Positions 7,669 through 20,589 of a stretch of DNA of 34,735 bases are shown here, in pieces. The notes below the pieces were generated by a model. That model saw only the letters and a list, made by a program, of their open reading frames with translations. It was not told the DNA's origin and made no database searches. Made by a program: the position numbers and the translations under genes. Position 1 is the stretch's first letter. Each line of letters begins with the position of its first letter. Origin of the DNA: Planctomycetaceae bacterium (GTDB lineage: Bacteria; Planctomycetota; Planctomycetia; Planctomycetales; Planctomycetaceae); assembly GCA_021732785.1 (NCBI GenBank), contig JAKFUG010000038.1:1-34735 (forward strand), written 5' to 3'.

Positions 7669-9696
7669 CTAGGGAACGGTCGCGGCGGCCGGTTCTCCAC
7701 TGCTCCCCAGAGGCGACGGGGTGGGCGACGGAACTTCAGGAATCGTGGCGTTCATCGGCACGCCGGGGAAAAGATCGTTCTTGGGATACGGCACCGGCGA
7801 TGAGAATTCTGCGGGTTCCGTATCCAGTTTTTCGTTCGGCTTCGCATAGCTGCGGGCCCACGCTCGGCGGAGGGCTTCCTGCTGAGCGGCCGGCGTCCAT
7901 TCGCCTTCCGCCAGCGAGACATTGTTGACATCCAACACCGTCCCGCGGCGTTGGTGCAGTTCGATGATGGCTTTGTTGTAATTCACGAGGCTGGTGAAGT
8001 AGGCAATCTCCGCCACGGCCTTGCTCGCCTGTGCTCGCAGCACGAGGTCCACGGTGGCGTCGCGCACACCGGCTTCGTACTCGGCTTGCGTGGCCTGGAC
8101 ACGACGCTCGGAAGCCACGCGGCGGTCGAAGTTGGTGCGAGCATTCGCATAAGCGATATCGACCCGTTGAATGGCTTCCGCCAATTCGTGGCTGATATCG
8201 AGTTCCTGTGCCGCCAACCCGGTACGGGCCTTGATCAATTGCAGTTCGGTATTTTCCAACTGCGCCCGTGCGGCCCGCAGACCGATGGGCATCGCAAATT
8301 GCAGTCCCAGAGTCCAACTGGTTTGATCGCCGCGGCCCAATGTGCCGTAGGCGCTGTTGAATCCCTGGGAAGTCACGCCATCGTTGTTCGTGGACGAGAT
8401 CAGCTTATCACCGAACCCGTTCACACCGTAACTGGAGACGAAGTTCAATTGTGGATTGCAGGCGTTCTCGGCCGCGATGCGTTGTAATTCCAGACTTTTC
8501 ACTTGCCATTTTTGACGTCGCAATTCCACGCGCCTCGTCAAAGACTCGGCCAGTGACATCTCCCAGTTCACATGATATTCGGCTTCCAGCGGGTTATCCG
8601 CCGGGCGAATGATGCGGCCATCATTGACGGGGAGTCCCATCAGGCGGCGAAACTGGTTTTCGGTGACATAAATGTTGTTCAACGCCAGTTCGACGCGGGC
8701 CCGGGTGTCAAAATAGTTTTCCCGCGCCTGCGCTTCCGCGGCGGCATTGCCGCCGCTGGCACCGACCTCCATCTTGGCACGGACTTCACGCCAGCTACGG
8801 AGAGCGCTATCGCGGTTGGCGTTTTCCGCATCGTATTGCCGGTAGGCGAGGAAGAGATCCCAATAGAGATCTTCCACGTCGCGCAACATCGTGATGACGG
8901 AACTTTCGAAGTCTGCCACCGAGATGTCTTCGTTAATCCGGGCGATTGTCACCCCCTGGTTGACACCGAGCAGACCGCCCAGGCCTTGTCGTGACGGACC
9001 GGCGATGCGTGTGAATTCCACACCGGAACCCGCCCACAACGGTTGTGTAAAGGCGGCTTGTAGATTGCCGGCATAAGAAGAGGGGAACAATGCCGAGGGC
9101 GAATTCGTCCCGAGATAATTCCAGTTGTGGCTGACGCTGACGTTCCCGCCGGTCGCGATGGCCTTACCAATCGACGAATTGAAAACCCCGGTTTCGCTGG
9201 TATTCACCTGATTCGGAAGCGCGGCCAGATTCGCAAAGGCTTCGTTGCGTCCCCAGAGCATGGACGTGGAGAAGTTGGCATCGAAATCGGCCAGGGCCGC
9301 TTCCACGCCGCGGTTTCCGAAGAGGAACCCGGTCGCGCGCAGCGACGGATCGTAAACGGACGGCGAATTCGTCGGATTCGCCAGTAATTGCGCGGTCCCG
9401 GCCCGCGTGCGAATCATTTTGTTATTCGCCAGCGCCGTCGCAATGGCTTCCGCTAACGGCATGTCCCAGGCGACGATTTCTTCTTCGTCTTTGACCGTGC
9501 GCGGCCGGATGGAATGCACCACCCCTGCGGGCGTTTCCTGGTCGACATTGGGGTAGTCGACTTCCAGCGCATTGTTTCGATAATGCTGCAGATCGGCGTC
9601 ACCGAGATACTTGATCTCTTTGGGAGTGTGGCAGCCCACCATCGCTCCGCCGACCATCAGCGCGTTGATCCATCGGATCGACTTCGCCCACCGCAT
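7669..9696 (-). CDS. TolC-family outer membrane lipoprotein
   Basis: 675 aa from the ATG at 9696, which has a GGGGGGAC purine run upstream and gives a signal peptide ending AMVGC (lipid-modified Cys22). An ATG at 9768 is less likely. The family is the outer-membrane efflux channel of RND, ABC or type I systems. Evidence is the long amphipathic helical repeats, such as ARENYFDTRARVELALNN, then LTRRVELRRQKWQVKSLELQ, and ELDISHELAEAIQRVDIAYANARTN, with a QFAMPIGLRAARAQLENTELQL strand-helix junction typical of TolC. It is longer than the usual 430-500 residues, with an N-terminal extension of about 100 residues and a Pro-rich C-terminal tail. No pump or adaptor gene is adjacent. Confidence 0.88.
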   Translation of the reverse strand: MRWAKSIRWINALMVGGAMVGCHTPKEIKYLGDADLQHYRNNALEVDYPNVDQETPAGVVHSIRPRTVKDEEEIVAWDMPLAEAIATALANNKMIRTRAGTAQLLANPTNSPSVYDPSLRATGFLFGNRGVEAALADFDANFSTSMLWGRNEAFANLAALPNQVNTSETGVFNSSIGKAIATGGNVSVSHNWNYLGTNSPSALFPSSYAGNLQAAFTQPLWAGSGVEFTRIAGPSRQGLGGLLGVNQGVTIARINEDISVADFESSVITMLRDVEDLYWDLFLAYRQYDAENANRDSALRSWREVRAKMEVGASGGNAAAEAQARENYFDTRARVELALNNIYVTENQFRRLMGLPVNDGRIIRPADNPLEAEYHVNWEMSLAESLTRRVELRRQKWQVKSLELQRIAAENACNPQLNFVSSYGVNGFGDKLISSTNNDGVTSQGFNSAYGTLGRGDQTSWTLGLQFAMPIGLRAARAQLENTELQLIKARTGLAAQELDISHELAEAIQRVDIAYANARTNFDRRVASERRVQATQAEYEAGVRDATVDLVLRAQASKAVAEIAYFTSLVNYNKAIIELHQRRGTVLDVNNVSLAEGEWTPAAQQEALRRAWARSYAKPNEKLDTEPAEFSSPVPYPKNDLFPGVPMNATIPEVPSPTPSPLGSSGEPAAATVP

Positions 9697-9840
9697 CCGT
9701 GCGTCCCCCCCGAGACGGATGAGAAGTGCGCTGTCGCCAATTGACGACCGCCTGCTCCCCATTTCCACAGTTCTGCGTAAATGCCCCCGTCCTTAGGAGC
9801 TTCCACAGAATCCGCACTTTGGGTATCGGCGGTAACTTCC

Positions 9841-10155
9841 TCATTTCTCTATTTGTTTCGTCCGCGGGATCACAGCCACGTAAGGCATCCCTAAGGCCTT
9901 TTTGACCAAAATCGTTTCCCCCGCGTCGTTTCCCTCAATGGCATGCCCGACGAATTGTAGTACATATCCCAATACGAACGCCCCGATGGCCCAATCCCAC
10001 TTCGCTTGCCAGGCAAAGACCAGCGAGACAATGAACGTCATCGGAACTCCAATCACATGCAGGATTTGGTTCACGGGATGCTGATGGCGTTCGATGTAAT
10101 TCTGGATGAAATTCAGCACGGATCGGACTTTCGCTGAAGGGTCTACAGGGGACAC
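9841..10155 (-). CDS. DUF962 / Mpo1-like small membrane protein
   Basis: 104 aa starting at a GTG (10155). The sequence shows the DUF962 signature: RHQHPVNQILHVIGVP near the N-terminus and GYVLQFVGHAIEGN in the middle, with two hydrophobic segments at about residues 37-47 and 54-68. In yeast the homologue Mpo1 is a dioxygenase in fatty-acid alpha-oxidation that uses conserved His residues as iron ligands. The corresponding His residues (HP, LHVIG, GHAIEG) are present here. The bacterial role is not established. It ends 145 bases upstream of the TolC-family start on the same strand. Confidence 0.85.
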   Translation of the reverse strand: MSPVDPSAKVRSVLNFIQNYIERHQHPVNQILHVIGVPMTFIVSLVFAWQAKWDWAIGAFVLGYVLQFVGHAIEGNDAGETILVKKALGMPYVAVIPRTKQIEK

Positions 10156-10213
10156 GGTCTGATTGATCGACCGGTATGCCTCATTGGAGTTTAGTCCAAT
10201 TGGACCGAAACGC

Positions 10214-12133: not shown

Positions 12134-13738
12134 CTATTGCGGACCGTTGTTGCCGGAGCGTTCCGTCGTTTGCGTGGAAGGAGCATTCGCGGGATCGCTG
12201 TTCGTGGCGGTGAGCGCTCCCTGATTGGCTCCGAACAGCCAGACTCCAATCATGATCACGACCACGGTCCCCAACGAAAGCAGCCCAATCGCGAGGGTCT
12301 TTTCCCAATCCCAGGGACGTTTTGGCGCGACGACGGGAACCGCTTGAGTACCGCGGACATTGATCGTTCGTCGCGATAAATCGGTGGCATTCTTGGCGAC
12401 CACCGTGGCCTTGGCGGAATCGCGTGCTGGTTTGGGAGCGATGGGCTCGACGCGGGGCGTCATCGGTTCCGGAGATCGTGGGACGGCCATGGCCGGTGCT
12501 TCGGCTTCCATCACCACCGCATCGTCCGTGACATTCAACTGCGGGGAGGCATACGCCACGGCGGGTCTTCCGCTGGGGGAAGACGCAGGCTTTGCCGACG
12601 GGACCGTCGGGTTCGCCGGTCGCGCAACGGTGTGCAACCCCGCATACTTGGCGACCAGTGCCGCATGGGATTCGCGCCAATCGTTGCCACCGTGATCGAC
12701 CAACCAGCGGCCGAGTGTTTCGGCCACATCGGCGGCGGTCTGATAACGATCGCCCGGCTTTTTGGCCATCATCTTTTCAACAATGGCCAGCAAGTCTTCC
12801 GGGATATCGGGCCGGTCGTACTTGATCGAAGGCGGCCGCCGCGTTTGATGGGCGAGCAAGCGTTGAACGAGCGAACCATCCGTAAACGGCGGATGCCCGG
12901 TGAGTGCGTAATACAGCGTGCAGCCGAGGCTGTAGATATCCGCCCGCAAATCGACCTTGTGACTGTCGATCGCTTGTTCGGGCGCGAGAAAATCGGCGGT
13001 CCCAAGGACTTTTTCATCGTGTTTGATCGTCAGCGATTCTTCATCGGACGCATTGAAGAACCGTGCGAGACCGAGGTCGAGCAGTTTCACAACGCCCGTT
13101 TGATCGATCAACAGATTTTCCGGCTTGATATCGCGGTGGACCAACCCGGCTTCGTGGGCGTGATGCAACCCGTCGGCACCCTGACGGATGTAGTCCACCA
13201 GTTCGATATACGGCAGCGGACCCTTTTCGAGCACCATCTTGCCGAGGTTCTTCCCGCTGACATACTCCATCACCAGGAAGTGAATTTCCGCGGCCCCTTC
13301 GTTCTGCTTGTCGACATCGAACGCCTTGACGATGTTCGGATGATTGAGTGAAGCGACGGCGCGGGCTTCGCGATGGAAGCGACCGAGATACGACGTATCC
13401 TGCACCTTGTTCGCCGGAAGCACTTTGATGGCGCAGCGGCGTTCCATCATGATGTGCTCGGCGAGGTAGACCGCCGACATTTCGCCGGTGCCCAGCAGCG
13501 ACAGGAGTCGATAGCGGCCGAGGATGAAGCCCTTGTGTCGACCCTGCAAAAGCTTTTCGCATTGCCAATCGGTCAACACTTTTCGCGCGACGAGCGACTG
13601 GGCAATCGCCGCGGAATCGGCGAGATCGACGCCGCTGCGCTGCAGGTCGTTCAGCAACGCATCGAAGCGCGGTGCATCGATCAGGCCGCTTTGTTTGACG
13701 CCAGCCAAAAAACTTGCGGCAGTCAGTTTGAGACTCAT
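12134..13738 (-). CDS. Membrane-anchored Ser/Thr protein kinase
   Basis: 534 aa from the ATG at 13738; an in-frame ATG at 13747 adds three residues, and positions here use the 537-residue form. Residues about 11-78 are the N-terminal helical module seen in many planctomycetal kinases (VARKVLTDWQCEKLLQG). The kinase domain spans about 79-350: glycine-rich loop LGTGEMSAV, Lys108 in CAIKVL, HRDIKPEN with Asp206, DLG at 224-226 in place of DFG, APEQ, and DIYSLGCTLYY. A Pro/Ala-rich linker follows to about 478. One membrane helix (about 484-506) is followed by a short Thr/Asn-rich tail outside, so there is no large extracellular sensor. It ends the operon that begins with bactofilin. Possible substrates are its neighbours, by inference. 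Confidence 0.95.
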   Translation of the reverse strand: MSLKLTAASFLAGVKQSGLIDAPRFDALLNDLQRSGVDLADSAAIAQSLVARKVLTDWQCEKLLQGRHKGFILGRYRLLSLLGTGEMSAVYLAEHIMMERRCAIKVLPANKVQDTSYLGRFHREARAVASLNHPNIVKAFDVDKQNEGAAEIHFLVMEYVSGKNLGKMVLEKGPLPYIELVDYIRQGADGLHHAHEAGLVHRDIKPENLLIDQTGVVKLLDLGLARFFNASDEESLTIKHDEKVLGTADFLAPEQAIDSHKVDLRADIYSLGCTLYYALTGHPPFTDGSLVQRLLAHQTRRPPSIKYDRPDIPEDLLAIVEKMMAKKPGDRYQTAADVAETLGRWLVDHGGNDWRESHAALVAKYAGLHTVARPANPTVPSAKPASSPSGRPAVAYASPQLNVTDDAVVMEAEAPAMAVPRSPEPMTPRVEPIAPKPARDSAKATVVAKNATDLSRRTINVRGTQAVPVVAPKRPWDWEKTLAIGLLSLGTVVVIMIGVWLFGANQGALTATNSDPANAPSTQTTERSGNNGPQ

Positions 13739-13852
13739 AGTATCCACGTCCTTCGCGGTCGATTGGCGAATGCCAACTCTGTTGCTCGCGGTCTTCGTTC
13801 AGTATTTTGCGTCCGAGCGAGTGCTCAGACCGGGGGTTCACTTCGCGTTGTC

Positions 13853-14308
13853 TCAACCAAAAATGCTGTCGACCGGGCCTTGTTGACCGATGCCGACGAC
13901 TTTCAACTCGTACACCAGCGTTTCTCCCGCCAACGGATGATTGGCGTCGAGCGTCACTTCTTCGTTATGAAACGATCGAATCCACACGTGCAAGGTTTCT
14001 TCGCCAATGACGGCGGCGACTTGATCCCCTTCGACAACGCGATCCGGCAATCCGCTGCGTGGTGCCGTCTGCTGCCAGCGCGCATCGCGGTACCCGAAGG
14101 CATGCTCGGGCATGACCGGGACCTTCTTCTGCTCGCCGAGTTTCATCCCGACGACTGCGCGATCCACGCCATCCACGACTTCGCCCGAACCGGCGATGAA
14201 GCTCATCGGCTCGCGATTCTGCGAGGTTTCAATCACGCATTGATCGTGCGAATACGTCGTGTAATGCACACGCACGCGGTCGCCCGGTTTCACCACATTG
14301 ATCGCCAT
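13853..14308 (-). CDS. FKBP-type peptidyl-prolyl isomerase, SlyD-like
   Basis: 151 aa from the ATG at 14308, which has AGGAAG upstream. The FKBP half-domains are recognisable: GDRVRVHYTTY, then GSGEVVDGVDRAVVGMKLGE and a PEHAFGYRD segment, followed by an inserted flap-like region and the C-terminal NHPLAGETLVYELKVVGI. NHPLAG is the hallmark of SlyD-type FKBPs. The insert has the position of the SlyD chaperone flap. There is no His-rich metal-binding tail and no signal peptide, so it should act in the cytoplasm as a folding helper. It starts 10 bases after the TPR gene and lies 114 bases upstream of the kinase, so it is probably part of the same transcript. Confidence 0.92.
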   Translation of the reverse strand: MAINVVKPGDRVRVHYTTYSHDQCVIETSQNREPMSFIAGSGEVVDGVDRAVVGMKLGEQKKVPVMPEHAFGYRDARWQQTAPRSGLPDRVVEGDQVAAVIGEETLHVWIRSFHNEEVTLDANHPLAGETLVYELKVVGIGQQGPVDSIFG

Positions 14309-14318
14309 CAATTGCTTC

Positions 14319-16289
14319 CTATAACAAATCGCCCAGGACGTGCGCGTTGCGATTCCGTCGATTCGAAACCTCTTCCGCCAGTTGCAACGCCTCGTCGAGA
14401 CGACCGGCCGATTCCAGCATGCCGACAAATTCCTCGAGCGTTTGTGCGGTCCGCGCCGTTGTCTGCGGGTCCGCTTCGTCATCCATTAATTTCAAGGCTC
14501 GCTGCATCCACGGGCGGAACTCCTGGAAATTCTGCTGCAACAATTGCAGCCGCGCCAGTCGTTCGACGCAGGCGGCAATGTCTTTCGGCGTGGCCCCCGG
14601 CATCCGCTCCGTCAAGGTCATCGCCCGGCGGAAGTACGCTTCGGCGTCCTGCGGGCGACCGCTCGCAACGAGGGCATCGCCGATCCGCATTAACGCGCCG
14701 CGCAAGCTGGGATGATCCAGTCCGATGAGTCCCTCGCGCAGTGCCAGTTCCTGCCTTGAGAACGATTCTGCATGGGCAAAGTCCGCGTGATGCCATGCCG
14801 ATTCGGCGAGCACTCCCGCCAGTTCGGCCATCTCGGGGGCCGTTCGTTCGAGCAAGCGCTCGGCTACGGCGAACGCCTTCCGCGAGTTTCGCGAAGCCTG
14901 GTCCCAGTTCCCGCAACCGAGTGCGACCTGAGCGCGGAGGCGGTAGACGGTCACCAGATCCGGGTGATTGAATTCCGTGATCGCCTTCAACAACTCCCCG
15001 GCCCGTTGCAATGCCGAGGACGCGAGTGCCCATTCCCCCGCCGCGCAGAGGGCTTCCCCTTCCGTGAGAGCCGCGAGCGCCACATCGACGTCATTCGCAT
15101 CGGTCGCACCATCGAGTTCGCGAACGGCGAGCGATGCGTGTCGCAATGCCGCTAGATGTTCTCTTCGCGCCAGCGCGATCTGCGCGAGCATTCGGAGTGT
15201 CGCCGAAAGAGAGATATCCCGGCGGGGCAAAAGTTCTTCCTGGATCGACAAGGCTTGTTGCGCGAGGCGTTCGGCATTGGCGATGCGCCCCCGGCCGAGA
15301 TAAACCCGTGCTTGCGAGCAAAGCACCAAGGCCACTTGCGCATGCCGCGGCCCCAAGACGTCTTCGAGAATCCGCGACGACTCATCGAGCAACGGTTCGG
15401 CTTCGGCCCATTTGCCGCGACGAATGAGCACATCGGCGAGCAATCGTAACGACCGGGCCAATTGCGGGTGCTTCTCGGAAAGTGCCCGTCGTCGAAGTGC
15501 CAGCGCGTCGCGGAAATATTTTTCGCTTTGACACCAGGCGCCCATGGCACAGCGAATTTCCCCCAGTTCGGTCAGCGACTGGGCGGTCAGCGGATGATTT
15601 TCCGTGAGTCGTGTTTGCGCGATCTGCAACGCGCGCTGACTGTTGATCTCGGCATCGGTAAACCGTCGTTGCTGCCGCTGACAGACCGACAGATTGTGCA
15701 GCGGAGCCATTAAACGGGGATCGGTCACCCCCAGCAATTTTTCGAGTGAGACGAGGTTGCGCCGGAAGAGCCGTTCGGCCAGCACGTACTCACGCTGGGA
15801 CAGATGGAGTGCCGCGAGATTATTGCGCGTACGCAACACGTCAACGTGATCGTCGGGGAGTTGGCCGATCAGCAATGCCGCTGCGCTGCGGGCGGCTTGC
15901 CATGCTTCCGGGTACCGTTCCTGTGCGAAATAAACTTCCGTGAGCTGGTTGTTCGCCTGTGCGAACTCCATCGTCGTATCGGCGCGATCTTCCCGCAGCA
16001 GCGCGACGGCTTCGTGCAGTCGCGTTTCTGCGGCGGTCAAGTCGCCGTCGCGCATGGCCAGCGTCGCGGCTTGCATGCGGATGACAGCCCGATCGGGAAG
16101 GGTCGCCTCGACCGATTGATCCATGTCCGCGATGACGGCATCCCATGCGATGCGGCTCTCGCCAACGCGGTCCTCATCGAGCAGCGATTCCGCCAGCCGT
16201 TGGAGCGCCTTGAGCACGCGCGGATCGCCCACGTCCCCGTGCGCACGGGCCGCGGCAATCTGCTGCTGCAACTGGCTGTCTCCCGTCAT
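14319..16289 (-). CDS. Large TPR protein (kinesin-light-chain-like repeats)
   Basis: 656 aa from the ATG at 16289; a GTG at 16295 directly after the preceding stop is an alternative. The protein consists of TPR repeats throughout, many of the 42-44-residue kinesin-light-chain type: for example LHEAVALLREDR, AERLFRRNLVSLEKLLG, DAEINSQRALQIAQTRL and YFRDALALRRRALSEKHPQLA. No signal peptide or membrane segment is visible, so it should be a cytoplasmic protein-protein scaffold. It abuts the 908-aa gene without a gap, indicating translational coupling, and precedes the FKBP gene by 10 bases. It may hold the operon's other products together, by inference. Confidence 0.9.
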   Translation of the reverse strand: MTGDSQLQQQIAAARAHGDVGDPRVLKALQRLAESLLDEDRVGESRIAWDAVIADMDQSVEATLPDRAVIRMQAATLAMRDGDLTAAETRLHEAVALLREDRADTTMEFAQANNQLTEVYFAQERYPEAWQAARSAAALLIGQLPDDHVDVLRTRNNLAALHLSQREYVLAERLFRRNLVSLEKLLGVTDPRLMAPLHNLSVCQRQQRRFTDAEINSQRALQIAQTRLTENHPLTAQSLTELGEIRCAMGAWCQSEKYFRDALALRRRALSEKHPQLARSLRLLADVLIRRGKWAEAEPLLDESSRILEDVLGPRHAQVALVLCSQARVYLGRGRIANAERLAQQALSIQEELLPRRDISLSATLRMLAQIALARREHLAALRHASLAVRELDGATDANDVDVALAALTEGEALCAAGEWALASSALQRAGELLKAITEFNHPDLVTVYRLRAQVALGCGNWDQASRNSRKAFAVAERLLERTAPEMAELAGVLAESAWHHADFAHAESFSRQELALREGLIGLDHPSLRGALMRIGDALVASGRPQDAEAYFRRAMTLTERMPGATPKDIAACVERLARLQLLQQNFQEFRPWMQRALKLMDDEADPQTTARTAQTLEEFVGMLESAGRLDEALQLAEEVSNRRNRNAHVLGDLL

Positions 16290-16295
16290 CGTCAC

Positions 16296-19022
16296 CTATT
16301 CCTCAAGGAAGACCCATTGTTCGGAGTTTTCCGGTAACGCGTCGGCCGCTTCCGTCGCAGTCTTTACCGCCGCCGTGAGCGCGGGAAGAATGCCGAAATC
16401 GTCTTTCAGCAAGGGACCGGCCAGCTCGGGGTTCCGGACATCGCCGGTGACCTGCCGCCGCCATTGCTCCCGGTAGCGATCCAGCCGCGCGCGGAGCGCC
16501 GCAAACGACAGCACTTGCGGGATCGCCGCGCGAAGGCGTTCCAGACGGAGGTTCAACTCGGTTCGGCCCGCGTCCAATTCGGGCCGGTCATGGGCATCCA
16601 GCGCGACTTGCGAAGCGAGTTCGTCCAGCTCGCGCATCGCCGATTGCCGCGCACGATGCAGTTCTTCTCCGCGCCGACGGTGTAACTCCGCCAGCGTTTC
16701 CGGGTCCGTCCAGACGGGCAAATCGAGCACGCGGGATGACGCCAGATGATCCTCCTGCTGGCATTGCAGTGCAAAGGCCGAGAGCCAGTCGGCCCAGCCG
16801 GAACTCAAGTGTTCGAGAATCGCCTGCTCCTGCTCCGCGGGTTCGCCCATCGGCTGCCAGGTTTCGTCCAACTCCATGTGCGGCATCTTTAGAAACTCGC
16901 CGTACAGCACATGGCGGACATCGGGTTCGTGCAACGCGAGCGGAACTTCGCCCGCACACAGGCGACGAATTTGTTCAACAGTGCGGCGGCAGGCCCCCAC
17001 ACCGGTCTGTACGATGTCGGCCGAACGGGTCCGCGCGATGACGTCGAGTTCGGCAACGACGCCGCTCGATCGTTCCAAAAGTTCGGTCCGCAATTCTTCG
17101 GCTTGTTGCGGTGCCAGGTTCAACCCGCGCGACGGGGTCGACGACTGCAACCGCAACCAGCGATTGGCCAGATCGATCGCTTCCAAAAGGACGTTCCGCA
17201 TCGGCTCGGTAAGCGGCATGGATCCGCGACTGCCCGCTGCTTTTGCCGTTTCCGGACCTTCCGCCTGCACCATCGCCGTCGCACGGGAGAGTTCGACGCG
17301 CACCGCATTCCGTTCGGCGGTGCCATCCCACATGGGACGCAACATCCGATGCGCGTTCAGCAACACTTCCTGCCACTTGGCCCATTCCATCACTTCGTGA
17401 GGGTGCCTTTGCGTCGGACTCGCCAGCACCGTCCAATGGGCGTGCAGAAACAAGGGGGATGACCGCTGGTAATTGACGCTCCGTTTGACGAACTGCGTGA
17501 GCCAATCGCGGACTTCCGTTTGCAACTGTTTCCGTTCGGCATGCCATTGCGTTTGCTCCGCCGGGGCCTGGAACAATTCCACGGCCTGGCTTTGCAGGCG
17601 TTCGCCAAACGCCGCGACTCGACTGCAATAGTTATAAAGGTGACTCAGGCCGGGCTCGATCGCGAACGAACGCAACACCGCCGACGCCGACGGCGAAGCC
17701 CCCAGCAATGCGGGCAACAAGGCGGCAGCCCGCTGGATTAAGCCGAGCCCGAGTAATTCATCGTCCCCTGCCGTCGCTGCGGGTGCGGAGGAGACAAAGG
17801 GTTTCAGTTCCAACTCGACTTCGCGAGCCAGTTCACCCCGGGAATACGACAGCGATCGCCCCAGCAACAAGGCGCGCAGCAAGCCCGCGGGGGGGACGAT
17901 GCCGCGACCGGAGGGAAAGCGTTCTCCCCCGCGCGCAAGATGCGCCGCCAGGGCCAGACGGTCATCCCGCACCAGTTGTCGAACGAGAGCGCTCGTGCGG
18001 ACTGCGGTCCGGGGAGCTTCGGCGGCAATCTCGCGCGCCATTTGCGCGGTTTGATCGGTATGCCAGATCGGCTTGGACAGTTCGAGATCGATCGCGGGCG
18101 GCGGCGATTCGGTCGTCGCCTCGGGAGAAGCCGCGGTGCCTTCGTCCGCCATCGTCGTGATGACATTCGCATCCGAAGCCGCTACTCCGGGCAGAATGCT
18201 CGAGCCCGAGGAGAACCAGCGCGTGGACGTGTCCGGGTCGGTCGCCATCGCGTCGTGCGGACCGGATTTCGCCGCCTCAACGATGACGGTCGGCTTGAGT
18301 TCGACGGTTTGACGAATGTGTGAGCCGGCCAGTGCATGAATCGAAGGCAACTCATCGACGGCTACCGGCGGTTCGGATTGTGGAACGGGACGACTTGATT
18401 CCGGCACGTTCACCGCGGAGGCCAGCGTCTCCGTCGTTGCCGCGCGGCGAATCCGTCCCCGAGCCAGTGCCGCGGCGAGGTTGCGACCGTAAGCACTCGC
18501 CACCACATCCTGTAACCGGTTCCAGTCGTCATCGGACAAATCGGCGGCCGGATCGCTCAACGTCAGCACGGCTTGCAATTCGTGCTCGCGGGCCAGCAGG
18601 CGGGCTTGTTCGTCATCACCGGGGTCGAGGGCCGACAGCAACCGCTGTTGACACCGCCGGGCCTCTTCCCGGCAACGTTCGAGTGGCGCATAGTGCGGAT
18701 CGTCGACGTGCGACAGCATGGCCACGACATCGAGCTCTCGCACCAGTGCTTCGCGCTGCTGCGACTTTTGAAAATTCTCTTCGAGCGATTCCAGCGACAG
18801 GCGAACATCGATCGCCGGAGGACGGCCGGTAATCTGCGTCGCCAGCGATCGCATCCGCTGGCGATAGTCCATCAGGTCGGCAAGAAGTTCGTCATCGGGA
18901 ACCACACCCGACGATTCGAGTTGGCCAGCTCCGTGCGCCAGCGCAGCCGACAGGCGACTGCGCCAATCGGCCAGTCGGTCAATTTCCTGCCGGACGCGTC
19001 CTGTTGTCCAAACACCGCTCAT
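16296..19022 (-). CDS. Unrecognised 908-aa protein, N-terminal module shared with the 203-aa neighbour
   Basis: 908 aa; the ATG at 19022 follows a purine-rich AAAAAGG. I do not recognise a family. Three parts are visible. Residues about 10-200 are helical and resemble the whole 203-aa protein two genes upstream: LSDDDWNRLQDVVASAYGRN then LAAALARGRI here, against a LNDDEWGHAMATVTSALGRD and FATALARGRL pair there. Residues about 200-340 are a low-complexity Ser/Thr/Pro/Ala linker. The remainder is helical and Leu/Arg/Glu-rich with no membrane segment. No catalytic motif is visible. It is co-oriented and abutting with the TPR gene. A structural or adaptor role in the bactofilin-kinase cluster is inferred. 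Confidence 0.85.
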   Translation of the reverse strand: MSGVWTTGRVRQEIDRLADWRSRLSAALAHGAGQLESSGVVPDDELLADLMDYRQRMRSLATQITGRPPAIDVRLSLESLEENFQKSQQREALVRELDVVAMLSHVDDPHYAPLERCREEARRCQQRLLSALDPGDDEQARLLAREHELQAVLTLSDPAADLSDDDWNRLQDVVASAYGRNLAAALARGRIRRAATTETLASAVNVPESSRPVPQSEPPVAVDELPSIHALAGSHIRQTVELKPTVIVEAAKSGPHDAMATDPDTSTRWFSSGSSILPGVAASDANVITTMADEGTAASPEATTESPPPAIDLELSKPIWHTDQTAQMAREIAAEAPRTAVRTSALVRQLVRDDRLALAAHLARGGERFPSGRGIVPPAGLLRALLLGRSLSYSRGELAREVELELKPFVSSAPAATAGDDELLGLGLIQRAAALLPALLGASPSASAVLRSFAIEPGLSHLYNYCSRVAAFGERLQSQAVELFQAPAEQTQWHAERKQLQTEVRDWLTQFVKRSVNYQRSSPLFLHAHWTVLASPTQRHPHEVMEWAKWQEVLLNAHRMLRPMWDGTAERNAVRVELSRATAMVQAEGPETAKAAGSRGSMPLTEPMRNVLLEAIDLANRWLRLQSSTPSRGLNLAPQQAEELRTELLERSSGVVAELDVIARTRSADIVQTGVGACRRTVEQIRRLCAGEVPLALHEPDVRHVLYGEFLKMPHMELDETWQPMGEPAEQEQAILEHLSSGWADWLSAFALQCQQEDHLASSRVLDLPVWTDPETLAELHRRRGEELHRARQSAMRELDELASQVALDAHDRPELDAGRTELNLRLERLRAAIPQVLSFAALRARLDRYREQWRRQVTGDVRNPELAGPLLKDDFGILPALTAAVKTATEAADALPENSEQWVFLEE

Positions 19023-19071
19023 GCCAAGCCTTTTTGCCGGAAGCCGACCACATCTTCACAGTCTGAATCGA

Positions 19072-19362
19072 TCAACCTTTCGGACTCACGGCGTGAATGC
19101 TGTCGCCACTCACCAGGTCGAGTTCAATATCAACGTCACTGTTTGCAGAGACCTGGTCGACGAGATTCTTCAACTCGGCCACGCTGCGCACATCGTCTTT
19201 CCGTGGCAGCGGAGGCACCCCTTCCTGCTCCATGCGGATTCGCAAGGCCTGCATCAAATCCTGATACACCGACTCCTGGACAACCGGCGAGTCAAACGCA
19301 TTCACCACCGTGGCCATTCCCGGCAGATACGAAAGCAGGGTTTTGTAGCGACATTGAGCCAT
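19072..19362 (-). CDS. Small conserved-looking protein of unknown function
   Basis: 96 aa; the ATG at 19362 has GGAGA six bases upstream, a strong ribosome site. It is soluble, with a helical centre (VVQESVYQDLMQALRIRMEQEG) and a second helix (VAELKNLVDQVSA), then a short acidic strand DVDIELDLVSGD. It has no Cys motif, membrane segment or signal peptide. I do not recognise a family. It lies 52 bases after the 203-aa gene and 49 bases before the 908-aa gene, so it belongs to the same transcript; the spacing and strong ribosome site argue that it is a real gene. Confidence 0.75.
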   Translation of the reverse strand: MAQCRYKTLLSYLPGMATVVNAFDSPVVQESVYQDLMQALRIRMEQEGVPPLPRKDDVRSVAELKNLVDQVSANSDVDIELDLVSGDSIHAVSPKG

Positions 19363-19414
19363 TGGTCTTCTCCAGGAGCGAAACTCAATCGAGGTTTGTC
19401 AGGCTGCGGTTCGT

Positions 19415-20026
19415 TCAAGAATTCGAAAGGGTTTCGATGGGCTCGTCGCTCAGCGTCAGACGACCGCGGGCGAGAGCGGTGGCGAAGTCGCGACCTAATG
19501 CCGAGGTCACGGTTGCCATCGCGTGGCCCCATTCGTCGTCATTCAGGTTGTCGGCGTCGTCCACTAACCGCACGGCCATCACCAGCGGGTGGTCACCCGC
19601 GTGCAACGAATGCACGAGTTCGTCGGACGGCGCGGGGGAAGTCAGATCGGCTTTCACCGTCGAGATTTCATTCCGCCATCGGTCCAACATGGGACTTGCC
19701 GCGTCACCAGCCGTGCCGTGCAATCGCGACGCCGTGTTGACACGGTCGAGGGCTGTTGCGAGTTGTTCACGCCGCGCCAGTTCGCCGTCGAGTTCCTGAA
19801 GGGAGACAATCCGCGACGATCCCCCGCCGCGGCCTTCCAATACGCACTCGCGCAAACGCCGGAAGTCCGCCCGATATTGTTGCATCTGCTGCAACAAGCT
19901 CTCGGACGGTTCCCAGCCTTGCTCACGCAGTTCAACCGCACCGCGCGCCATCGCCTCGCTGAGTTGCCGGCCCACGTGGCGCAACTGCTGCAATTCCTCT
20001 TGCCAAACCTCTAAACCCGCGATCAT
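19415..20026 (-). CDS. Coiled-coil protein, paralogue of the N-terminus of the 908-aa protein
   Basis: 203 aa; the ATG at 20026 is preceded by a GGGGGC run. It starts with a helix-rich segment, LEVWQEELQQLRHVGRQLSEA, followed by LLQQMQQYRADFRRLRECVLEG and SLQELDGELARREQLATALDRV. It ends with LNDDEWGHAMATVTSALGRD then FATALARGRL. The same order of elements (W/DWRSRLSAAL, DLMDYRQRMRSLA, SLESLEENFQ, then DDDW and ALARGR) occurs in residues 10-200 of the 908-aa protein, so the two are paralogues by eye. It has no signal peptide or membrane segment. It is the second gene after bactofilin, 59 bases downstream. Function is unknown. Confidence 0.82.
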   Translation of the reverse strand: MIAGLEVWQEELQQLRHVGRQLSEAMARGAVELREQGWEPSESLLQQMQQYRADFRRLRECVLEGRGGGSSRIVSLQELDGELARREQLATALDRVNTASRLHGTAGDAASPMLDRWRNEISTVKADLTSPAPSDELVHSLHAGDHPLVMAVRLVDDADNLNDDEWGHAMATVTSALGRDFATALARGRLTLSDEPIETLSNS

Positions 20027-20085
20027 GGTGCCCCCGAAATCCGCCGTGCCGTCGTGAGAGGGGAACGGTGCGAAAGCTCAGTGAA

Positions 20086-20589
20086 TTACACTTTGGCAGC
20101 GACGGGAGCGGCATCGCGCATCCCGCTCTCGACGGCGGGTTTGGCCACCGATTCCACCTTGCCGCCCACCTGGAAGCGACCATTGAATGTCGAACCCGAT
20201 TCGACGTTGAGATTCTTCGTGATCACGTCGCCATCAATCACGCTGCTGGCTTTGATGATCAGCAGACCGGAGGCCTGCACGGTGCCGCGAACGCGTCCGG
20301 CCACCTCGGCGTGGTCGGCAAGGATGTTTCCTTCCACGACGGAGTGGGTGCCGACCACGAGTTTGGTCTTCGTGGTGACGTCACCGCGGACGATCCCTTC
20401 GAGCATGAGATCCCCGTCGGCAATGATATTGCCTTCGATGATGGTCCCCTTGCCAATAACGTTGGTGGTTTCCATGCGCAGGGAATTCGTGTCGGCATTA
20501 AAATTGTTCTTCGACGGTGCGGGGGCGACAGGCACAGGAACCTCGTTCACCACCCCTTTCTTCGGGACTGATCCAAACATCGTGGCCAT
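20086..20589 (-). CDS. Bactofilin family cytoskeletal protein
   Basis: 167 aa from the ATG at 20589, which has GGAG eight bases upstream. A longer open frame to 21099 runs through the repeat element and is not supported. Residues about 44-145 are the bactofilin (DUF583) beta-helix: short repeated strands with Gly turns, such as VIGKGTIIEGNIIADGDLML, EGIVRGDVTTKTKLVVG, and SSVIDGDVITKNLNVESG. It is flanked by Pro/Ala-rich disordered tails at both ends, as usual. Bactofilins polymerise without nucleotide into membrane-associated filaments that position other proteins. It is the first gene of the minus-strand cluster and divergent from a DUF1559 gene, so its promoter lies within 20590-20980. Confidence 0.93.
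   Translation of the reverse strand: MATMFGSVPKKGVVNEVPVPVAPAPSKNNFNADTNSLRMETTNVIGKGTIIEGNIIADGDLMLEGIVRGDVTTKTKLVVGTHSVVEGNILADHAEVAGRVRGTVQASGLLIIKASSVIDGDVITKNLNVESGSTFNGRFQVGGKVESVAKPAVESGMRDAAPVAAKV

What the first reader, a model, noticed from the sequence alone, without database searches (positions are those of the whole stretch)
12134..20589. Bactofilin-headed operon with coiled-coil, TPR, isomerase and membrane kinase genes
Seven minus-strand genes run in order with gaps of 59, 52, 49, 0-6, 10 and 114 bases: bactofilin, 203-aa coiled-coil protein, 96-aa protein, 908-aa protein, 656-aa TPR protein, FKBP-type isomerase, membrane Ser/Thr kinase; a secreted coiled-coil protein follows. 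Bactofilins form filaments that localise other proteins (known). Four of the seven proteins have no family I recognise or only generic TPRs. The set could be a kinase-controlled, bactofilin-scaffolded assembly at the inner membrane (inference).
Basis: partly seen in the sequence, partly recalled or inferred. Interest (0 to 1): 0.75.

Follow-up and report, generated by a model that had tools for sequence, protein, structure and literature searches.

The report
Kinase–bactofilin scaffold cassette in planctomycetes
Seven neighbouring genes in this planctomycete stay together in a fixed order in distant relatives; they join a bactofilin filament protein and a membrane kinase to three new protein families, one of which resembles the front half of giant ATPases found near bacterial defence genes, and what they do together is not yet known.

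Summary
The order bactofilin, p203, p96, p908, TPR, FKBP, kinase is complete in 10 genomes of 6 genera of one planctomycete family (FKBP inverted in 3 of the 10). Other window genes are shared, at most, with one same-genus locus. A smaller core (bactofilin, p96, kinase, mostly with TPR) occurs in two more genera. All 22 of 170 genomes with a strong bactofilin also have p96; in 21 of 22 the two genes are adjacent or one gene apart. Bactofilin is optional: five otherwise complete loci lack it. New: p203 and the first 190 residues of p908 are paralogous; p96 is a predicted helical hairpin with a conserved C-terminal motif (DLVEGDSIH); p908 matches, over its length, the front half of giant P-loop NTPases of other phyla but has no P-loop. 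One such giant carries part of a pPIWI-RE protein. Most likely a membrane signalling scaffold: bactofilin gives position, kinase control, p96 is the adaptor, p203/p908/TPR the assembled layer. No interaction or phosphorylation was tested. The downstream coiled-coil gene does not belong.

The parts
20086..20589 (-). bactofilin (start 20589, or 20580 giving MFGSVPKKG...)
   Evidence: PF04519 87 bits; the only PF04519 match in the genome; N-terminus resembles the published bactofilin membrane-targeting consensus MFSKKKK (passages of PMC12448750)
19415..20026 (-). p203: stand-alone copy of the p203 helical domain
   Evidence: 33% identical to p908 residues 11-191, E 2e-16; no Pfam, PADLOC or NCBIfam family
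19072..19362 (-). p96: adaptor candidate; N-terminal LPxMAxVVNxFxSPxVQ region and C-terminal DLVEGDSIH motif
   Evidence: alignment A2; 30 of 170 family genomes, one match in each; AF2 helices 2-21 and 26-46 with a low-confidence tail
16296..19022 (-). p908: p203-type N-domain (2-195), disordered linker (196-321), helical C-domain (323-860); no P-loop
   Evidence: AF2 mean pLDDT 77.4; related to the front half of giant NTPases; no P-loop motif
14319..16289 (-). TPR protein, 656 aa
   Evidence: TPR_12 186 bits; closest NCBIfam model FxSxx_TPR far below its cut-off (109.9 vs 300)
13853..14308 (-). FKBP-type peptidyl-prolyl isomerase, 151 aa
   Evidence: FKBP_C 63 bits, cut-off 21.1; gene inverted in five relatives
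12134..13738 (-). Ser/Thr protein kinase with one hydrophobic (probable TM) segment near the C-terminus, 534 aa
   Evidence: Pkinase 166.7 bits; HRD..N and DLG in 25 of 25 cassette kinases, hydrophobic segment in 23 of 25

Best explanation
The locus is a conserved signalling-scaffold cassette. Shown: the genes stay together in fixed order at 24-36% protein identity (p203, p908, TPR) while the window's flanking genes are not shared; p96 and the kinase are the constant parts, bactofilin is frequent, and p203, p908, TPR and FKBP are add-on parts. Inferred: the bactofilin polymerises on the inner membrane through its MFGxxxKK-like N-terminus and marks a site. The kinase is held at the same membrane by its C-terminal segment with its catalytic domain in the cytoplasm. 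p96 is the adaptor: its helical hairpin binds one partner and its flexible tail with the DLVEGDSIH motif docks on another (kinase or bactofilin, the only other cassette proteins in the smallest version). p203 and p908 bind each other through their paralogous domains; the long linker of p908 lets its helical C-domain, with the TPR protein, form the assembled layer. The FKBP helps fold or remodel it. Kinase activity switches assembly on or off.
For: Fixed order, complete in 10 genomes of 6 genera. Flank control. p96 in 30 of 170 family genomes, one match in each; in 28 of the 30 at least one other cassette gene lies beside it, the exceptions being G103 (dispersed) and G142 (remnant). All 22 genomes with a strong bactofilin have p96: Fisher P 2e-21 over genomes, 2e-8 over genera, neither corrected for phylogeny. 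Core versions: bactofilin-p96-TPR-kinase in six uncut loci (p96 frame broken by a stop in one, G132) and one cut by a contig end, and bactofilin-p96-kinase in G110. Catalytic motifs in 25 of 25 cassette kinases, hydrophobic C-terminal segment in 23 of 25, MF-type bactofilin N-termini. The p203 domain often comes as a tandem pair, one free and one fused: with p908 in the cassette, with TPR in G292, G301 and one locus of G271, and in G121 with a long repeat protein; G286, the second G271 locus and G307 have only one copy, and in G259 the fusion state is cut off. TPR and p203 domains are fused outside the family. AF2 model of p908: two helical domains and a disordered linker.
Against: No interaction, localisation, transcript or phosphorylation data. 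Bactofilin is absent from five otherwise complete loci, so the rest works without it. FKBP is inverted in G036, G106, G107, G108 and G184, so the cassette is not always one transcript; TPR is missing in G031 and G114. S88 of the p96 motif is N in 2 of 26 rows, against it being an obligatory phospho-site. The promoter/terminator scan was no better than shuffles. In G103 bactofilin, p96 and p203-p908-FKBP lie on different contigs and its bactofilin looks divergent. In the p203-domain tree 17 of 49 inner branches are open, so a single origin of the p203/p908 pair is not shown. AF2 confidence for p96 is only moderate (69).
Confidence: 0.42

Rival explanations
1. Morphogenesis module: the bactofilin-p96-kinase core positions envelope growth (bud, stalk or pole), as bactofilins do elsewhere, and p203/p908/TPR are its local machinery.
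For: Caulobacter BacA recruits a cell-wall synthase for stalk growth (passages of PMC12448750); membrane-type N-termini and hydrophobic kinase segment.
Against: No cell-wall enzyme is in the conserved cassette. 140 of 170 genomes of the family have neither p96 nor a strong bactofilin, so it cannot be a general need for budding or stalks.
Confidence: 0.25
2. Conflict or stress sensor platform: p908 is a domesticated sensing half of a giant defence-type NTPase, held at the membrane by bactofilin and read out by the kinase.
For: The p908 profile matches a Brasilonema plasmid giant over positions 3-852 and a Salinibacter plasmid giant over 4-517 and 605-846. One related giant (L079) lies near a DEAD/DUF559 helicase and a RAMP gene; the Azospirillum giant carries part of a pPIWI-RE RNaseH domain and follows pPIWI-RE genes; the Brasilonema giant has an MzaA-like stretch, E 1e-49.
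Against: No effector (nuclease, TIR, peptidase) was found in the cassette. PADLOC gives nothing for p203, p908, bactofilin and FKBP, and only a Cas11 hit at E 0.015 for p96; the PD-T4-6 hits of the kinase and the TPR hit are generic. Mobile-element context was not examined systematically. Shared ancestry need not keep function.
Confidence: 0.15
3. An ordinary neighbourhood of unrelated housekeeping genes.
For: TPR, FKBP and kinase are generic families; the own genome has 51 places that match the kinase, itself included, and the best other one is 57% identical over residues 6-400, close to what some cassette kinases of other genera reach over longer alignments (51-57%).
Against: Order conserved across genera while the window's flanks are not; p96 is found beside other cassette genes in 28 of 30 genomes; in the 10 other-genus loci whose kinase alignment is confined to about residues 4-396 identity is 63-74%.
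Confidence: 0.03

Closest known systems
Bactofilin BacA with its client PbpC (Caulobacter; passages of PMC12448750)
   Same: membrane-bound bactofilin polymer that recruits a client; MF..K..K type N-terminus
   Different: no kinase, p96, p203 or p908 (recalled for Caulobacter); here no cell-wall enzyme is in the cassette
Bactofilins BacN/O/P with PadC and ParABS (Myxococcus; recalled, no call)
   Same: bactofilin with a dedicated partner protein
   Different: partner and cargo differ; no kinase-p96 core
Giant P-loop NTPases of islands and plasmids (Brasilonema QDL19264.1, Salinibacter WP_162892365.1, L079, L080)
   Same: helical C-domain of p908, and in the first two the p203-type N-domain as well
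   Different: p908 lacks the NTPase half and its P-loop; the giants lie in other neighbourhoods
NTP-dependent conflict systems of Kaur et al. 2020 (PMC7159879, passages only)
   Same: kinase, TPR and inactive-NTPase themes; planctomycetes among the carriers
   Different: bactofilin and FKBP are not mentioned in the main text; no MoxR-vWA pair among the cassette genes
FxSxx-COOH TPR proteins (NF040586)
   Same: TPR repeats of the same broad type
   Different: score 109.9 against a cut-off of 300

Membership tests
Bactofilin (PF04519) | bactofilin domain | tested here: met
   87 bits, cut-off 27.9
Bactofilin (PF04519) | membrane-targeting N-terminus | tested here: inconclusive
   by sequence: MFGSVPKKG at 20580 and MF-type starts in relatives resemble the published consensus, but the start codon is not proven and binding was not tested
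Bactofilin (PF04519) | forms filaments | not testable with these tools
   needs microscopy or biochemistry
Hanks-type Ser/Thr kinase | kinase domain with catalytic motifs | tested here: met
   PF00069 166.7 bits, cut-off 31.7; HRD and DLG in 25 of 25 cassette kinases; activity not tested
FKBP-type isomerase | FKBP_C domain | tested here: met
   63 bits, cut-off 21.1; activity not tested; no NCBIfam equivalog reached
FxSxx-COOH system | TPR protein above the NF040586 cut-off | tested here: not met
   109.9 bits, cut-off 300
Giant P-loop NTPase | P-loop NTPase domain | tested here: not met
   no [GA]xxxxGK[ST] in any of 21 family p908 sequences, three of them short or partial; present in 8 of 8 giants
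Giant P-loop NTPase | homology of the N-terminal half | tested here: met
   E 1e-148 over profile positions 3-852 in L155
Known anti-phage defence system | system-specific protein in PADLOC-DB | tested here: inconclusive
   p203, p908, bactofilin, FKBP none; p96 Cas11 at E 0.015; kinase and TPR only generic matches

The most novel reading that the evidence does not exclude
A defence-type giant NTPase lost its motor half, and the remaining sensor or scaffold half (p908) was recruited to a membrane-anchored bactofilin filament, where a dedicated membrane kinase and the small adaptor p96 replace the NTPase as the switch: a bacterial signalosome anchored on a cytoskeleton.
Probability: 0.15. Interest if true: 0.85.

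Novelty: new variant of a known kind. Interest (0 to 1): 0.62.

Why it matters
Bactofilins are scaffolds whose clients are often unknown. In this family the strong bactofilins sit, in 21 of 22 genomes, beside one small new protein and, where the contig reaches far enough, one membrane kinase. That names candidate partners and makes kinase control of a bactofilin directly testable. p96, p203 and p908 have no match above a family cut-off in Pfam or NCBIfam and no convincing relative among solved structures (for p908 and p203). The kinship of p908 with giant NTPases found near defence-type genes suggests a route by which a conflict-type protein may become a scaffold part.

Tried and rejected

Literature: six searches, bactofilin + Planctomycet (7 papers); bactofilin + membrane-targeting + N-terminal (3); bactofilin + protein kinase + TPR + operon (4); STAND + Planctomycet + tetratricopeptide + conflict systems (5); bactofilin + gene cluster + partner + scaffold (9); bactofilin + phosphorylat + kinase (25, of which 15 listed). 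I saw listings with abstract starts, and passages only of PMC12448750 and PMC7159879. None of the titles or abstract starts describes this cassette; most subscription papers are not in the library.

Rows dropped or limits: of 32 genomes with PF04519 at E <= 0.001, 10 with E above 1e-6 were left out of the 22 'strong' ones (G059 and G151 are just over the curated cut-off). The genome searches scored only part of their first-look candidates (up to 30, 5, 2), so 'one copy' and 'absent' hold for what was scored. The 30 p96 genomes include partial or broken copies (G018, G103, G132, G142). A2 holds 26 of the 28 p96 frames (L023 and L090 left out); A3 holds 35 of the p203-type frames found. G018, G019, G100, G112 and G135 are fragments or cut by contig ends and were not used to say that a gene is missing. 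The large 'gaps' before TPR in L022, L025, L061-L063, L066 and L072 come from my choice of start inside long TPR frames. The TM statement rests on a Kyte-Doolittle window, not on a TM predictor.
Full report
OBSERVATION. The seven minus-strand genes exist as described, with gaps of 59, 52, 49, 6, 10 and 114 bases. Pfam assigns bactofilin, TPR, FKBP and kinase domains; p203 and p96 match nothing and p908 only a sub-threshold hit. NCBIfam gives nothing for these three; PADLOC nothing for p203 and p908 and, for p96, a Cas11 hit at E 0.015 that I take as chance. The genome has one PF04519 match, this one.

HIDDEN PARALOGY. p203 and residues 11-191 of p908 align at 33% identity, E 2e-16. The same pairing, a short p203 gene and then a long gene with a p203-type front, recurs in relatives.

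CONSERVATION. A p908 match was found in 23 of 170 genomes of the family, in 24 of 397 sampled from the class and, by profile, in 8 of 392 sampled from the phylum; all these counts include the window's own genome. I fetched up to 20 kb around family matches, class matches and bactofilins without a p908 match, and searched all open frames with iterated HMMs of each cassette protein. All seven genes in the same order occur in G000, G002, G013, G028, G036, G106, G107, G162, G165 and G173: 10 genomes, 6 genera; FKBP is inverted in G036, G106 and G107. G031 and G114 lack TPR. G001, G033, G108, G120 and G184 lack bactofilin (FKBP also inverted in G108 and G184; the p908 of G184 lacks the p203-type front). 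Genus g72 has bactofilin-p96-TPR-kinase (six loci, plus G135 cut by a contig end) and G110 has bactofilin-p96-kinase. Identity to the window proteins, with the same-genus L021 left out, is 24-34% for p203-type hits, 26-36% for p908, 24-34% for TPR and 51-74% for kinase.

CONTROLS. The 16 other window genes tested are absent from 25 of 26 family loci; ten of them are in the same-genus locus L021. Strong bactofilins (E < 1e-20) are in 22 of 170 genomes and p96 in 30 of 170, one match in each. All 22 bactofilin genomes are among the 30. In 21 of the 22 the two genes are adjacent or one gene apart; the exception is G103, whose divergent-looking bactofilin, p96 and p203-p908-FKBP are on different contigs. 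Fisher P is 2e-21 over genomes; over genera, all 10 bactofilin genera lie among the 14 p96 genera of 58, P 2e-8. Neither is corrected for phylogeny. In G142 the p96 frame has lost its C-terminal motif, no other cassette gene is in its 13.5-kb contig, and the genome is not among the bactofilin matches. In the class sample p96 was found only in this family (20 of 397). In genome contigs 20 of 78 pattern matches encode p96; all 20 are metagenome-assembled genomes, 19 with planctomycete names in the title (one as Candidatus Kuenenia stuttgartiensis) and one titled only 'bacterium'.

PARTS. p96: 13 invariant columns over 26 sequences, in an N-terminal LPxMAxVVNxFxSPxVQ region and a C-terminal motif with invariant G, I and H; AlphaFold2 gives a helical hairpin (2-21, 26-46) and a low-confidence tail (mean pLDDT 69). 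p908: N-domain 2-195 and C-domain 323-860, both helical and mostly confident except short stretches (520-537, 595-599); linker 196-321 and the end 864-908 are disordered. No PDB relative was established by sequence or fold. Most cassette bactofilins start MFGxKxKK or similar, like the MFSKKKK consensus reported for bactofilin membrane targeting (PMC12448750, passages). Cassette kinases have HRD and DLG in 25 of 25 and a hydrophobic C-terminal segment in 23 of 25 (weak in G184, absent from the 410-aa frame of G028). The own genome has 51 places that match the kinase, itself included; the best other one is 57% identical over residues 6-400. Kinases of other genera in the cassette are 63-74% identical in the ten loci where the alignment is confined to about residues 4-396, and 51-57% in the four where it runs into the tail, so the cassette kinase is a recognisable but not sharply separate lineage.

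WHERE p908 AND p203 COME FROM. The C-domain of p908 is part of 1,790- and 1,913-aa proteins in G310 and G266 whose later part has an AAA_22 P-loop domain. Relatives lie on plasmids of Brasilonema, Salinibacter, Thiodictyon and Azospirillum. The Brasilonema giant matches the p908 profile over positions 3-852 and the Salinibacter giant over 4-517 and 605-846, so both include the p203-type domain. All 8 giants examined carry GGR(Q/R)LGKT; none of 21 family p908 sequences, three of them short or partial, has a P-loop motif. The L079 giant lies near a DEAD/DUF559 helicase and a RAMP gene. The Azospirillum giant carries the end of a pPIWI-RE RNaseH domain and follows pPIWI-RE genes, and the Brasilonema giant has an MzaA-like stretch. 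Outside the family the p203 domain is joined to TPR repeats in G292, G286, G301 and G271 and, in G121, to what I read as HEAT-like and propeller-like repeats (sequence; no domain scan was run on it).

MECHANISM. Shown: conservation of order, core versus add-on genes, domain kinships, membrane features predicted from sequence. Inferred: that bactofilin provides position, the kinase control, p96 an adaptor function, and p203/p908/TPR an assembled layer. The pairing of one free and one fused p203 domain suggests, but does not show, that p203 binds p908. The smallest version (bactofilin-p96-kinase, one genome) suggests that the partners of p96 are the bactofilin and the kinase. Loci without bactofilin show that the filament is replaceable or dispensable, so 'bactofilin-headed' fits most but not all members.

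VERDICT. A real cassette that none of my six literature searches turned up; a new variant of the known theme of bactofilin scaffolds, with new protein families and a kinase at its core. Function is open.

Noticed in passing
L079:8919-14312, L080:8422-14196, L151:7708-12468, L152:4606-10773, L155:9646-16515, L156:10987-16770, L157:9985-16101, L158:6347-13558: A family of giant (about 1,600-2,400 aa) P-loop NTPases with GGR(Q/R)LGKT; in five of the eight (L080, L151, L152, L156, L157) a related gene of about 377-442 aa follows directly. Looks like an island system that I cannot name.
   Followed up: partly
L158:379-13558: On an Azospirillum plasmid the giant carries the end of the pPIWI-RE RNaseH domain, split from the preceding pPIWI-RE gene, with a pPIWI_RE_Z-like gene upstream.
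   Followed up: partly
L079:16548-18864: About 2 kb downstream of the G310 giant lie a kinase in two overlapping frames and a TPR gene, the same two gene kinds as in the cassette.
   Followed up: no
L081, L082, L083, L085, L086: Outside the family the p203 domain is the C-terminal part of TPR proteins, in three of these five loci followed by a second stand-alone p203-type gene.
   Followed up: partly
L067:5039-9526 and 9523-10170: In G121 a 1,495-aa protein joins a p203-type domain to what read like HEAT and propeller repeats, next to a stand-alone p203-type gene; no bactofilin or p96 in the region.
   Followed up: no
L159:3619-3990: p96 remnant in G142 that has lost its C-terminal motif, with what looks like a transposase-type frame nearby and no other cassette gene on the contig.
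   Followed up: partly
L154:8745-12380 (own genome, contig C22): Closest paralogue of the cassette kinase, 57% identical over residues 6-400, in a 1,212-aa frame.
   Followed up: no
window 20580-20589: Bactofilin start ambiguous: 20589 has a GGAG upstream, 20580 gives the MFG-type N-terminus of the relatives.
   Followed up: partly
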